DNA from: Streptomyces piniterrae
Lineage (GTDB): Bacteria; Actinomycetota; Actinomycetes; Streptomycetales; Streptomycetaceae
Direction of reading: 5' to 3'
Length of the DNA: 64,000 bases
NCBI RefSeq assembly: GCF_005048155.1
Contig: NZ_SUMB01000007.1
Location: forward strand, 1-64,000
This document shows positions 22,470-26,782 of this stretch, one piece after another (the first letter of the stretch is position 1; each line of letters begins with the position of its first letter). Position numbers and translations under genes: made by a program. Under the pieces are notes generated by a model, which did not search any database, had not been told where the DNA came from, and was given only the letters and a program-made list of their open reading frames with translations.

Positions 22470-23458
22470 TGCGGGACGACGAGGACGGCACGCCGCTGCG
22501 GCTGCTGCCCTGGACCACGCAGGACGGCGCGCCGTGCTACCTCAGTACGGACGACGTCGACAGCCGGCTCTCGCTGCTGGCCGACGACCTGGAGGACGAA
22601 CTCCTGGCCGGAGCCGAACGCCTGCTGGCCCATGTCAGCCCACAACTCGCCGCCCCGGACGCGGACTCGGAGGAACTGCGCCGTAGCGCCGTGTGGCTCA
22701 TCATCGGGCTGCGCGACGCGCTGCGGATCGCCAACAGCCGAGGCGCCCGGCTGCCGGTACCCGCCGCTGTCTCGTCAGACAGCGCGCCGGATCCGGGAGA
22801 AGGAGGGGACCGAGGCGAGGAACAGCCAGGTGGTGACGATGAAGGGCCAGGTGAGGGTGCGTCCGCCGAAGGGTGTGAAGTAGGCGTTCAGGGCGGCGGT
22901 CAGCACGGTGCTGGTGGCCACGCCCGCCAGGGTGTAGAGCGTGCTCGACACCGTTCCGGTCAGGAAGATGGTGCCCAGTGCGATGGCCACCAGGACCCCG
23001 TTGTAGCCGTAGACGCCCGCGGCGACCGCACCCGGCGGGGCACCGAGTGCCCAGGCCACGAGCACCGCGACGGCGCTGCCCAGGGTGGCGGCGAGCCCCG
23101 GACGGAGCCCGGCGACGAACAGCGCCATCAGCATGATCACGCCGACATGCCAGTGGGCCGAGAGTCCGACCTGGGAGATGTTGGTGAAGAACCCCTGCCA
23201 CAGGTCGGTCCACGAGTAATGGACGTCGGCGGTGGCCCTGACGGGCAGCGCGGCGGGGCTCCCGCCGTGCCAGACCCGCGTGAAGGCGGGGGCGGCGATC
23301 ACCACCACTCCGCAGACGATGCAGAACGGCGCGGTCAGCACCGGAATACTCCACGGCGCCAGCAGTGCGGACAGTGCCGCGAAGAGCAGCACGCAGAGGA
23401 CGGCACCGCCGACGGCCAGCAGGTAGGTGGAGGGGTGGTGGCCCAGGAAGATGAGTAA
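22466..23458 (+). CDS. Acidic small protein gene with no stop at its natural end
   Basis: The ATG at 22466 overlaps the stop of the upstream gene. The first 100 codons look like a real protein: MMRDDEDGTPLRLLPW, then CYLSTDDVDSRLSLLADDLE and SAVWLIIGLRDALRIANS. After RLPVPAAVSSDSA, near 22.78 kb, the frame stays open to 23458 but is simply antisense to the urea transporter gene, and its composition becomes low-complexity Gly/Glu. I infer that the gene's 3' end was lost by a rearrangement at about 22.77 kb. Only the first third is supported as meaningful protein. The function is unknown. Confidence 0.45.
   Translation: MMRDDEDGTPLRLLPWTTQDGAPCYLSTDDVDSRLSLLADDLEDELLAGAERLLAHVSPQLAAPDADSEELRRSAVWLIIGLRDALRIANSRGARLPVPAAVSSDSAPDPGEGGDRGEEQPGGDDEGPGEGASAEGCEVGVQGGGQHGAGGHARQGVERARHRSGQEDGAQCDGHQDPVVAVDARGDRTRRGTECPGHEHRDGAAQGGGEPRTEPGDEQRHQHDHADMPVGRESDLGDVGEEPLPQVGPRVMDVGGGPDGQRGGAPAVPDPREGGGGDHHHSADDAERRGQHRNTPRRQQCGQCREEQHAEDGTADGQQVGGGVVAQEDE
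22765..22784. terminator. Short 8-pair hairpin at the urea transporter stop
   Basis: CGCTGTCT and AGACAGCG pair around a 4-base loop. The hairpin includes the stop codon of the transporter gene on the minus strand and marks the point where the convergent plus-strand frame loses coding character. It could be a weak terminator. Confidence 0.4.
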
Positions 23459-23758
23459 GGCGATGCCGATCAGGCAGCCGCTGAACCCTTGCAGCCCGAT
23501 GTCGATGCTGCTCTTGTCGACGCCCAGGGCGTACGCCGTCGTGGTGGAGACCACGGTGCCGAGCAGCGCGAAGACACCCGTCTGCCAGCTGTCCACGAAG
23601 AGCGCGAGCAGGATGAGGCCGCCCGCCCATACGTTCGCCTGGAGGCTGAGCTGGGCGAAGCCGCGGGCCAACTGCGCCATGAGGCGGACCGGGCCGGGCG
23701 GGGCGGCGGCCTCCGGGGCGTCCGGTGCCCCCATGTCCGAGGTCTCCGAAGTGGTCAT
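22775..23758 (-). CDS. Urea transporter (UT/Yut) family channel
   Basis: A protein of 327 residues with about ten membrane helices. LQANVWAGGLILLALFVDSW, then GLQGFSGCLIGIALLIFLG and, in the second half, AGVYGYNGVLVAIALGTIF are the two internal-repeat segments of the urea transporter family. Family members form a passive channel for urea and related small amides. No urease gene is in the window. It is the last gene of an ATGA-coupled unit with a cysteine enzyme and a ligase-decarboxylase, so it might move a product or by-product of that pathway. The ATG at 23758 lies inside a 20-base tandem duplication that also carries an earlier ATG. Confidence 0.88.
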   Translation of the reverse strand: MTTSETSDMGAPDAPEAAAPPGPVRLMAQLARGFAQLSLQANVWAGGLILLALFVDSWQTGVFALLGTVVSTTTAYALGVDKSSIDIGLQGFSGCLIGIALLIFLGHHPSTYLLAVGGAVLCVLLFAALSALLAPWSIPVLTAPFCIVCGVVVIAAPAFTRVWHGGSPAALPVRATADVHYSWTDLWQGFFTNISQVGLSAHWHVGVIMLMALFVAGLRPGLAATLGSAVAVLVAWALGAPPGAVAAGVYGYNGVLVAIALGTIFLTGTVSSTLYTLAGVATSTVLTAALNAYFTPFGGRTLTWPFIVTTWLFLASVPSFSRIRRAV

Positions 23759-23780
23759 GGGGTCTCCGAAGTGGTCATGG
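23741..23780 (-). repeat. 20-base tandem duplication across the stop/start junction
   Basis: 23741-23760 and 23761-23780 are identical. Read on the minus strand, each copy starts CCATGACCACTTCGG. The first ATG (23778) overlaps the stop of the cysteine-enzyme gene. It now opens a 7-codon frame (MTTSETP) whose TGA overlaps the second ATG (23758), the transporter start. Confidence 0.92.
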
Positions 23781-24344
23781 CCCGCCGTGGGAGGGGGCCT
23801 GCGCGGCCGGGTCGAACTGCCACGGCCCGTCTTCCTCGCGCAGGGCGAGGACACGGCCGCTCGCCAGGTGCACCCCCGCGCCTGCGAACCAGCGGGCTTC
23901 ACTGGGGTCCCACCAGCGATTCCCGACCCGGAGCACCTCGTGGTGCACCACCGTCCGGCCGATCCACGCGTCGCTGGCCTGCGCCTCGTTCCAGCTGGCC
24001 CGCCAGTGCGCGGGAGCCAGCGGCGCCGTCAGCACCGCGGCGCGGCCGCGTGAGTGGGCGATGGCTTCCCGCGTGAGCAACGAAGCCGCCACGTCGGCAT
24101 GGACCCCGCAGTCGCCTCTCAACTCGTCCTGGTGTGCCAGCTCGCACCAGTGCGCCGGCCACCGCATGGGCCCCCACCGGATGAGCGCGGGAACGGCGGC
24201 GAGGGCGGCGCCCATGTCCGTGTACTGCGTGAGCCGGGCGAACACGCCGTGCCTGACCGCGTGGCAGCACGCCTTCCCGTGACTGGCCATACGGGACAGC
24301 CCGATCCCGTCGAACTGCTTCAGCTCCGCGACCAGGCCCGTCAT
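23775..24344 (-). CDS. Transglutaminase-like (papain-fold) cysteine enzyme
   Basis: A protein of 189 residues with no signal peptide. The motifs RGDCGVHADVAASLL, VVHHEVLRVGN and RWWDPSEARWF supply Cys, His and Asp in the order and rough spacing of transglutaminase/papain-fold enzymes. Such folds act as proteases, amidases, acyltransferases or lasso-peptide leader peptidases. The ATG at 24344 overlaps the stop of the ligase-decarboxylase gene (ATGA) and its own stop overlaps the next ATG, so the three genes are tightly coupled. A role in cleaving or transferring the ligase product is an inference. Confidence 0.7.
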   Translation of the reverse strand: MTGLVAELKQFDGIGLSRMASHGKACCHAVRHGVFARLTQYTDMGAALAAVPALIRWGPMRWPAHWCELAHQDELRGDCGVHADVAASLLTREAIAHSRGRAAVLTAPLAPAHWRASWNEAQASDAWIGRTVVHHEVLRVGNRWWDPSEARWFAGAGVHLASGRVLALREEDGPWQFDPAAQAPSHGGP

Positions 24345-26683
24345 GACTCCCCCAGTTCCCGCGGCGCGGTCCCGCGCCCGAACTCGTAGGCCATCGAGGT
24401 GTCGTACGCGCCGCACATGCCGAACGCGAGGTGGTCGCCCTCCCGGACGTCGTCCAGGTCGAGGCGCCATGCGAGGACATCGTGCTCCATGCAGGATCTG
24501 CCCAGAATCCTGCTCCGGCCGGGACGCAGCGGTACCCAGGCCGATCCGTCGAACCGGGCCACCGGGTGCAGCCGGTACGGCCCCTCGGGCATGTCGCCCT
24601 CGCCCGCGTCGACGACGATCTCGCAGTTCGAGCCGGTTTCCCGGCGCACCAGGACCTGTGTCACGACGGCGGCCGTCGGCTGGGTGAGGAGCTTGCCCGG
24701 CTCCAGCACCAGCAGCGGATCGGCCTCGCGTGCCGCGGCGGGGCCGTGCGCGAGCACATACTCCAGCGACGGACGCAGCCCCGTCATGTCGTCGACGTGC
24801 CACCCGCCGCCGACGTCCAGCACGGCCGGGGGCTGACCGAGCTGATCCGCCAGCGGATCGGCGGCTCTCAGCGCTGCCGCGCATTCGCGCTGCCAGCGCG
24901 GCGCGCCCAGGTTGCTCTGGGCGAAGTGGAAGTGCAGCCCCCACCGGGCGCCGAGCCGCCGGGCCAGCGTGCCGAGCAGCCGAGCCGCCTCGGCCATGAC
25001 CTCGCGCTCGTGCAGCGGGATGCCGAATCGGCTGCTGAGGGCGACGGGGGCGACGCGGATCCCGATGACCTCGGCCGTCAGCCGGAAGCCGTCGTCCAGC
25101 AGTGTGTGGAGTCTGCGCAGTTCCGCCACGGAGTCGGCGAAGAAGGCCCAGCAGCGCACGCGGTCGGTGGCCGGCCACCACTTCGCGGGCCCGTTGAGGA
25201 TCGCGCGGTCGGCCGACAGACCGAGGCCGTCGGCCACATCGAGCTCGGCCAGGCTGATCGCCTCGGCGACCATGCCCAGCCGTGCGGCCTCACGCAGCAC
25301 CGCGGGCTGGGGGCACGTCTTGATGCTGTGCGCGAGCAGCACCCTGCCGAGCCCTTCGACCTGCCGCTGCAGGGCGTGGACCTGCTCGGTGAACAGGGGG
25401 AGGAGGAGATGCCGACGGGGCGTGGCCCCGCGTCCGGGAGGTTCGAGCAGATCCTCGAACCCTCCTGCCTGCGCCGCTGTCGCCGGACGGCCGTCGACCG
25501 ACTCCTCGGCCACCACATTGCGTTCGTCCGGAAGCAGCCCTCGCCGGCCCAGCGAGGCCATCCCCGAGGGATGTTTGTCCGCCACACGGGACAACCCGCC
25601 GGCAGACCAGGTGAACGGGGTGATGCCCAGAGACGGGTGGACCGGGATCTCCTCGACCACACGGGTGAAGCCGGGGGCCAGGGGCCTGCCCCGGTCGGCG
25701 GCACGCCCCGCGACCAGGGCCGCGGGCAGGTTGGCGCCGCACACCGAAGCACCGTGGATCCAGGCGGGCAGGCGCGGGTTGACCTCCATGAGCGTGAGTT
25801 CGCCGTTCCAGCCGCGGATCAGTTCCAGCTCGCCGCCGCCGCTCCACAGGCTGTCGGCGACGAGAGCCGTCAGCCGGTCATGCAGCTCTCCGTCCAGTTC
25901 CGCGACTTCGGCGGCCCATGTCTTGCCCTCGCCCGTGACCATCGCCTTGGTGATGAACACCGCGTCGAGGAGCCGGCCGTCCAGGGCGCAGAACGCGATG
26001 CTGCACTCCTGGCCGGCGACATGTGCCTCCAGATGCCATCCGCCGCCCCACGTCTGCTCCAGCCGGGTTCCCAGGGCCAGCGCGTCCTGGGCGCTGAAAG
26101 CCTGAAAGGCGTCGTGGTGCTCGCCCTTCACCCATACGCCGTGCGGAGACCGGCGGATGAATCGTTCGACGGCCTGCCAGCTGGTGTCGGTCTCGTACTC
26201 CGCGGAGCGGACGCCGAGCCGTGCGGCGGCATCGACGGGAGGCTTGCACACCAGGTCAAGCGCGGTCTTCGAAGGGGCCAGAACCCGGTCGTGGGCACCC
26301 ATCTCCGTCGCGAGCAGCCGGACTTCCAGGTCCAGGCAGGGAATCAGCACCGCGTCGTCGGGCTCCAGAAGGCGCTCGATCTGCTCGGTCCAGGTGGCGA
26401 GGTGCATACGGCTCCACGGCGGCAGGCACACCAGGTCGTCGAGGACGTCCGAGTGCAGCCCCGAACTGTCCGGCGAGTAGTCCACGCCGACGAGCCGGAG
26501 ATCGGGCCAGGCGAGCCGCAGGGAGCGTGCCACGCTCAGGCCGGACGACGGGTTCGGGCCGCTGTGCATACCGCTGATGAAGACCGTGCCGATGGTGGCC
26601 GCAGGCCCCTTCGACGCCTCAGGTCTCGTGCCATCCCGGCTTACGTCCACCAACTCGCGGAGAGTACGTGCTCGGAGCCCCAT
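24341..26683 (-). CDS. ATP-grasp ligase fused to a PLP-dependent DAP/ornithine-type decarboxylase
   Basis: A protein of 780 residues. Residues about 28-390 are an ATP-grasp domain of the carbamoyl-phosphate-synthase type: TVFISGMHSGPNPSSGLSVA start, HGVWVKGEHHDAF with an ATP-site lysine, and LELIRGWNGELTLMEVNPRL with Mg-binding Glu and Asn. Residues about 420-780 are a fold-III decarboxylase: AHSIKTCPQPAVL with the PLP lysine near 455, LDVGGGWHV for phosphate binding, GRSCMEHDVL with the catalytic cysteine near 731, and AYDTSMAYEF. It probably ligates and decarboxylates an amino acid. The start is ambiguous: ATG 26683 or GTG 26719, neither with a good ribosome binding site. Confidence 0.82.
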   Translation of the reverse strand: MGLRARTLRELVDVSRDGTRPEASKGPAATIGTVFISGMHSGPNPSSGLSVARSLRLAWPDLRLVGVDYSPDSSGLHSDVLDDLVCLPPWSRMHLATWTEQIERLLEPDDAVLIPCLDLEVRLLATEMGAHDRVLAPSKTALDLVCKPPVDAAARLGVRSAEYETDTSWQAVERFIRRSPHGVWVKGEHHDAFQAFSAQDALALGTRLEQTWGGGWHLEAHVAGQECSIAFCALDGRLLDAVFITKAMVTGEGKTWAAEVAELDGELHDRLTALVADSLWSGGGELELIRGWNGELTLMEVNPRLPAWIHGASVCGANLPAALVAGRAADRGRPLAPGFTRVVEEIPVHPSLGITPFTWSAGGLSRVADKHPSGMASLGRRGLLPDERNVVAEESVDGRPATAAQAGGFEDLLEPPGRGATPRRHLLLPLFTEQVHALQRQVEGLGRVLLAHSIKTCPQPAVLREAARLGMVAEAISLAELDVADGLGLSADRAILNGPAKWWPATDRVRCWAFFADSVAELRRLHTLLDDGFRLTAEVIGIRVAPVALSSRFGIPLHEREVMAEAARLLGTLARRLGARWGLHFHFAQSNLGAPRWQRECAAALRAADPLADQLGQPPAVLDVGGGWHVDDMTGLRPSLEYVLAHGPAAAREADPLLVLEPGKLLTQPTAAVVTQVLVRRETGSNCEIVVDAGEGDMPEGPYRLHPVARFDGSAWVPLRPGRSRILGRSCMEHDVLAWRLDLDDVREGDHLAFGMCGAYDTSMAYEFGRGTAPRELGES

Positions 26684-26782
26684 GCCGACATCATCAGCAG
26701 ATGTCTCCCCCGGGGGCACCCGGTGGCATCCGGCAGGGTGAGAGGACGCCCCGGCTCACCGCCGCGGCGCCCGCCCATGAAC

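What the first reader, a model, noticed from the sequence alone, without database searches (positions are those of the whole stretch)
22775..26683. Coupled operon of an ATP-grasp/PLP-decarboxylase fusion, a papain-fold cysteine enzyme and a urea-channel protein
Three genes on the minus strand are chained by ATGA overlaps (26683 to 24341, 24344 to 23775, 23758 to 22775). Their products are a ligase plus decarboxylase in one chain, a Cys-His-Asp transglutaminase-like protein, and a UT-family channel. I know of no characterised system with this set. A partial parallel is butirosin, where separate BtrJ (ATP-grasp) and BtrK (PLP decarboxylase) load and decarboxylate glutamate on a carrier; no carrier protein is visible here. 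A pathway making a small decarboxylated amide or amine that leaves through the channel is my inference.
Basis: partly seen in the sequence, partly recalled or inferred. Interest (0 to 1): 0.78.

Follow-up and report, generated by a model that had tools for sequence, protein, structure and literature searches.

The report
Ligase-decarboxylase cassette with urea-type channel
Three genes in a Streptomyces make an enzyme that probably joins two small molecules and then removes CO2, a second enzyme that probably trims or transfers the product, and a urea-type pore; the enzyme pair recurs in unrelated bacteria, and the pore seems to have joined it twice independently, which suggests an undescribed pathway for a small amide or urea-like compound.

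Summary
Three co-directional genes encode an ATP-grasp/fold-III PLP-decarboxylase fusion (780 aa), a 189-aa Cys-His-Asp protein, and a UT-family channel. One detail is wrong: only the first junction is an ATGA overlap; the second is a 16-nt gap.

The fusion plus Cys-protein pair is conserved in order in Streptomyces, Bdellovibrionota and Alphaproteobacteria (~33% identity for the fusion; distance matrices correlate at r=0.98). A UT gene follows it in one Streptomyces clade and in three Bdellovibrionota genomes. A UT tree favours two separate recruitments. The three Bdellovibrionota genomes have no detected urease.

The decarboxylase is not an ordinary ODC or DapDC. Among solved structures its family profile scores best with N-citrylornithine decarboxylase FigC, and it shares FigC's Met in place of the Asp that binds a free side-chain amine. 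FigC's predicted citrate-contacting Arg is replaced by invariant Met. This points to an amide-capped, non-citryl amino acid made by the fused ligase.

The butirosin parallel is only partial: no carrier is seen in the cassette, and BtrK is not the nearest relative. The Cys-protein is a new family of probable transglutaminase-like fold. Substrates remain unknown. No published description was found, but literature access was limited.

The parts
24341..26683 (-). ATP-grasp / fold-III PLP decarboxylase fusion, 780 aa (ATG 26683; an in-frame GTG at 26719 exists, but the closest orthologues start MGL at the ATG)
25649..26593 (-). ATP-grasp domain (about residues 31-345), with E287, E300, N302 and R304 of the E-x-N-P-R type metal/ATP site
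   Evidence: ATPgrasp_Ter in 13/14 members; model pLDDT 79, Foldseek 2pn1 8.1e-15, PurK, RizA, PylC
24368..25396 (-). PLP-decarboxylase domain (about residues 430-772): K455 (PLP Lys), H586, E661, C731-M732-E733-x-D735
24479..24493 (-). Cys loop C731-M732-E733-H734-D735, Met in place of the Asp of ODC/DapDC, as in FigC C354-M355
   Evidence: PMC7857480
23775..24344 (-). Transglutaminase-like Cys-His-Asp protein (TGL), 189 aa; C79, H135, D146 invariant; start overlaps the fusion's stop by 4 nt
22775..23758 (-). UT-family channel, 327 aa, one TTA codon (codon 101)
23739..23778 (-). Direct duplication of ATGACCACTTCGGAGACC(C/T)C spanning the UT start; the upstream ATG is out of frame

Best explanation
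A compact, horizontally mobile biosynthetic cassette. The ATP-grasp domain forms an amide (or acyl-urea) at the side chain of an alpha-amino acid. The fused PLP domain then removes the alpha-carboxylate of that capped amino acid, as FigC does with N-citrylornithine, giving a decarboxylated N-acyl amine. The separate transglutaminase-like Cys enzyme then hydrolyses or transfers the acyl group through an acyl-enzyme. The UT channel carries urea or a small neutral urea-like amide that is a substrate, by-product or product of the set. Shown: anatomy, intact catalytic residues, co-inheritance of the enzyme pair, its link with UT in two lineages, and FigC-type rather than ODC-type specificity residues. 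Inferred: order of steps, substrates, product and direction of transport.
For: FigC/7kh2 is the best PDB match to the family profile, 2.6e-42 against 1.9e-34 for the best DapDC and 1e-29 for BtrK, and the nearest reference in a tree. PLP-site residues are conserved; M732 equals FigC M355 and is invariant; FigC R387 is invariant M764 here (with PMC7857480). The ATP-grasp fold and its E/N/R site are kept. The Cys-His-Asp triad is invariant. Fusion and TGL distance matrices correlate at r=0.98, p=2e-4. The TGL start overlaps the fusion's end by 4 nt in the window's Streptomyces clade and 26-50 nt in the proteobacterial loci. UT is third in six Streptomyces and three Bdellovibrionota loci, and the UT tree favours separate recruitments. 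No urease was found in the three Bdellovibrionota genomes. Flanking genes are not shared between most loci.
Against: UT is absent in other lineages: a fatty-acid-desaturase-like gene follows in Streptomyces L006/L007/L020, and an ABC importer plus a 2OG-oxygenase-like gene follow in L027. The channel is therefore not obligatory and the product may differ between lineages. Tree branches are long. As single sequences, lysA scores above FslC in NCBIfam. No substrate was tested. The fold match of the Cys-protein is weak.
Confidence: 0.5

Rival explanations
1. Urea (or a close analogue) is a reagent: the channel supplies it, the ATP-grasp domain couples it to a side-chain carboxylate (acyl-urea), the PLP domain decarboxylates, and the Cys enzyme resolves the acyl-urea.
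For: The Streptomyces cassette UT sits next to a urease-linked urea transporter in the tree and keeps Q24, T130 and T/S294 with Q at 187. UT appears to have been recruited twice. No urease was found in the Bdellovibrionota genomes, so urea breakdown there is not the obvious purpose. A neutral side chain would suit the Met pocket.
Against: No ATP-grasp enzyme that uses urea this way is known to me. F27, F190 and F243 of the urea slot are changed in the Streptomyces UT, and T130 is lost in the Bdellovibrionota UTs.
Confidence: 0.15
2. Polyamine circumvention: a diamino acid is capped, decarboxylated and uncapped by the Cys enzyme, releasing a free diamine and recycling the cap.
For: Ligase, capped-amino-acid decarboxylase and likely amidase are enough for such a cycle; FigC itself is part of a putrescine bypass (PMC7857480).
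Against: Does not explain the UT gene; very rare distribution for a core metabolite (3 of 394 Streptomyces).
Confidence: 0.14
3. Carrier-free butirosin-like side-chain synthesis: the amino acid is ligated to a protecting group, decarboxylated, then transferred to an acceptor by the Cys enzyme.
For: Same enzyme classes as BtrJ and BtrK; BtrK is among the better PDB matches (1e-29).
Against: No carrier protein in the cassette in any locus read; no acceptor-synthesis genes shared nearby; the decarboxylase is nearer FigC.
Confidence: 0.12
4. Siderophore-type (FigA/FigC-like) pathway making a citryl-diamine.
For: Closest decarboxylase relative is FigC.
Against: ATP-grasp instead of a NIS synthetase in the cassette; the predicted citrate-contacting R387 is invariant Met; a urea-type pore is too narrow for a siderophore (established UT structure knowledge).
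Confidence: 0.04
5. Chance neighbours: UT and the middle gene merely adjoin the fusion.
For: UT is not universal.
Against: Pair conserved across three phyla with matching distances; UT adjacent to it in nine loci from two lineages, mostly with different flanks.
Confidence: 0.03

Closest known systems
N-citrylornithine decarboxylase FigC/FslC (with NIS synthetase FigA)
   Same: Best PDB match of the decarboxylase family profile; same PLP residues; NGPxK and SCM motifs; Met in place of the amine-binding Asp
   Different: Fused to ATP-grasp instead of paired with a NIS synthetase; predicted citrate-contacting Arg387 is Met; extra Cys enzyme and channel
Butirosin BtrJ/BtrK
   Same: ATP-grasp ligase plus fold-III PLP decarboxylase logic
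   Different: One chain here, no carrier protein seen in the cassette, BtrK less similar than FigC or the best DapDC
ATPgrasp_Ter / PRK12767 ATP-grasp group, PylC, RizA
   Same: Fold and E-x-N-P-R type active site
   Different: Sub-threshold for the curated Pfam model in the window protein; fused to a decarboxylase
Transglutaminase-like / NAT / papain superfamily cysteine enzymes
   Same: Invariant Cys-His-Asp; weak fold match to 3isr, transglutaminases and arylamine N-acetyltransferases
   Different: No sequence match to any Pfam, NCBIfam or PDB entry; a new family with invariant W57, P59, W62, P63 and W66
UT urea channels (dvUT, Yut)
   Same: PF03253 2e-79; Q24, T130, T294, F80 kept in the window protein
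   Different: F27 and F190 to Leu, F243 to Tyr; encoded with a ligase-decarboxylase, not urease

Membership tests
Diaminopimelate decarboxylase (TIGR01048) | Curated score cut-off | tested here: not met
   81.4 bits against 297.9
ODC / DapDC / ADC group | Acidic residue after the catalytic Cys to bind the free side-chain amine | tested here: not met
   Invariant Met732; role of the residue from PMC7857480
N-citrylornithine decarboxylase FigC/FslC (NF041039) | Curated score cut-off | tested here: not met
   48.2 bits against 500
N-citrylornithine decarboxylase FigC/FslC (NF041039) | Predicted citrate-contacting Arg387 | tested here: not met
   Met764 in all 15 sequences
N-citrylornithine decarboxylase FigC/FslC (NF041039) | Met355 after the catalytic Cys | tested here: met
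Butirosin BtrJ/BtrK system | Acyl carrier protein | tested here: not met
   No carrier-like gene shared by the cassette loci; among neighbours scanned a PP-binding domain appears only in the divergent S. radicis locus L009
ATP-grasp ligases | Fold and E/N/R active-site motif | tested here: met
   the motif is lost in L009
ATP-grasp ligases | ATP-dependent amide formation | not testable with these tools
   needs purified enzyme
Transglutaminase-like / papain superfamily | Cys-His-Asp triad | tested here: met
   C79, H135, D146 invariant in 14 sequences
Transglutaminase-like / papain superfamily | Significant fold match | tested here: inconclusive
   3isr probability 0.95, E 0.02, TM 0.39; no PDB hit under 0.001
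UT urea channel family (PF03253) | Family score and pore residues | tested here: met
   2e-79; Q24, T130, T294 kept, two Phe replaced by Leu
UT urea channel family (PF03253) | Conducts urea | not testable with these tools
   needs flux assay

The most novel reading that the evidence does not exclude
A biosynthetic pathway in which urea itself (or a urea-like amide) is a reagent or released product of an ATP-grasp/decarboxylase fusion, with a urea channel recruited at least twice to serve it, and with a new transglutaminase-like enzyme family finishing the product.
Probability: 0.22. Interest if true: 0.8.

Novelty: new variant of a known kind. Interest (0 to 1): 0.56.

Why it matters
If right, a three-gene unit encodes ligation, decarboxylation, trimming and transport in under 4 kb, with an unnamed cysteine-enzyme family and a urea-type channel tied to biosynthesis rather than to urease. 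It is small enough to express whole and read by mass spectrometry. The apparent twofold recruitment of the channel gives a rare clue to the size and charge of the compound.

Tried and rejected
Ordinary DapDC/ODC: rejected by NCBIfam cut-offs and the Met after Cys. Siderophore: rejected as main reading because the citrate-contacting Arg is lost and the cassette has ATP-grasp rather than a NIS synthetase. Defence system: no PADLOC match. Viral spread: no relative in IMG/VR. Plasmids: one relative, S. zaomyceticus. Literature: no paper found with this gene set in the held open-licence library; the 2009 amidoligase survey PMC3268129 is not held (one search opened a wrong id). UT for urea nitrogen use: in the window genome another UT and urease genes exist elsewhere, and the Bdellovibrionota cassette genomes show no urease (MAGs may be incomplete). 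Arginase-family genes are present in all eight genomes tested, so urea could be made inside the cell and this does not discriminate.

Full report
Observation. Translation of the stated coordinates gives three intact proteins of 780, 189 and 327 aa. The fusion and the middle gene share ATGA (GAGTCATGACG). The UT gene starts 16 nt after the middle gene's stop, next to an 18-20 bp direct duplication that creates a second, out-of-frame ATGA.

Domains. In the window protein Pfam finds the PLP-decarboxylase barrel above threshold; the decarboxylase C-terminal sheet domain and ATPgrasp_Ter fall just below their cut-offs. The third gene is a clear UT. The ATP-grasp call becomes solid with the family: 13 of 14 members match ATPgrasp_Ter, the AlphaFold model (mean pLDDT 79, disordered linker 312-390 of the modelled stretch) matches PDB ATP-grasp folds at E-values around 1e-14 to 1e-12 (2pn1, PurK, RizA, PylC), and the E-x-N-P-R site is kept except in S. 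radicis L009, where it reads AVKPT. The middle protein has no sequence relative in Pfam, NCBIfam or PDB. Its model is confident (pLDDT 92), C79, H135 and D146 are invariant, and the sensible fold matches are transglutaminase-like, NAT and papain-superfamily enzymes, but weak.

Which decarboxylase. With the family profile, N-citrylornithine decarboxylase FigC (7kh2) scores best of all PDB chains, 2.6e-42, ahead of DapDC 1.9e-34 and BtrK 1e-29. In a tree of the domain the fusions (with two Cellulomonas stand-alone domains) form a 100/99 clade and FigC is the nearest reference, with long branches. Against this, single-sequence NCBIfam scans rank lysA above FslC, both far below cut-off. Residue mapping shows the FigC PLP residues conserved (R290 is Lys or Arg). 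FigC Met355, which replaces the Asp that binds a free side-chain amine in ODC/ADC/DapDC (PMC7857480), is invariant Met732. FigC Arg387, predicted there to contact citrate, is invariant Met764. Inference: the substrate's side chain is capped, and the cap is not citrate.

Co-occurrence. A scan of GTDB species genomes and profile searches of roughly 1,600 further genomes found the pair rarely: 3 of 394 Streptomyces including the window's, no other genome among 397 Actinomycetota, 3 of 58 in the Bdellovibrionota phylum, 2 of 385 Alphaproteobacteria. In every locus with both, the order is fusion then middle gene, and the distance matrices agree (r=0.98, p=2e-4). UT follows in the window, L003, L004, L005, L008 and L029 and in the Bdellovibrionota loci L010-L012 (UT 2e-22 to 1.5e-26). 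The sets sit in different surroundings: no flanking gene of the window recurs, and among the other loci only L005/L008 and the three Bdellovibrionota loci share neighbours. The likely mobile unit is therefore the cassette itself.

The channel. In a UT tree the Streptomyces cassette UTs nest with ordinary Streptomyces UTs, next to one (L043) whose downstream genes read as urease accessory genes, while the Bdellovibrionota cassette UTs branch apart (ultrafast bootstrap 82-94). The same enzyme pair thus appears to have acquired a urea-type channel at least twice; fast divergence of one lineage is the alternative. The window UT keeps the Gln/Thr pore residues but has Leu at F27 and F190. The window genome has another UT (43% identical) and urease genes elsewhere. 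The three Bdellovibrionota genomes have no detected urease and this UT only, though they are MAGs.

Variants. In a second Streptomyces clade (L006, L007, plasmid L020) a fatty-acid-desaturase-like gene takes the third place. In an alphaproteobacterium (L027) the pair lies in a larger set: AMP-binding enzyme, a 575-aa unknown, fusion, TGL, SBP_bac_5 ABC importer and a PhyH oxygenase, with another fatty-acid-desaturase gene nearby. So the core is the fusion plus the Cys enzyme; channel and oxygenase are alternatives.

Mechanism. Best supported: side-chain capping by ATP-grasp, alpha-decarboxylation by the FigC-like domain, hydrolysis or transfer by the Cys enzyme, and movement of urea or a small neutral amide by UT. 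The first two rest on conserved active sites; the third on the triad and operon; the fourth on recruitment and family only. No chemistry was tested. Novelty claims are limited to the collections and open-licence papers searched.

Noticed in passing
window 23739-23778: 18-20 bp direct duplication at the UT start that creates a second, out-of-frame ATG on the preceding stop codon.
   Followed up: partly
L027:2772-16617: Alphaproteobacterial version lies in a larger set with an AMP-binding enzyme, a 575-aa unknown protein overlapping the fusion start, an ABC peptide-type importer, a PhyH oxygenase and a fatty-acid-desaturase gene.
   Followed up: partly
L006:4009-5697, L007:11171-12868, L020:11908-13425: Second Streptomyces clade has a fatty-acid-desaturase-like gene in place of UT.
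   Followed up: partly
L013:10001-11161, L015:10001-11086: Cellulomonas encode the decarboxylase domain alone, divergent from a gene that reads as gamma-glutamyltranspeptidase.
   Followed up: no
L009:9962-12190: S. radicis fusion has lost the ATP-grasp E/N site and lies among PKS/NRPS-type genes without the Cys enzyme.
   Followed up: partly
L010:13875-16285, L011:9469-13467, L012:13933-16254: The three Bdellovibrionota loci share a ~600-aa DeoR-HTH protein and a small secreted-looking protein next to the cassette.
   Followed up: no
L037, L038, L039: Three other Bdellovibrionota genomes carry UT domains in ~700-aa proteins, apart from the cassette.
   Followed up: no
L014:14150-14929: A TerC gene lies 1.2 kb from an alphaproteobacterial cassette whose ATP-grasp matches ATPgrasp_Ter; may be chance.
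   Followed up: no
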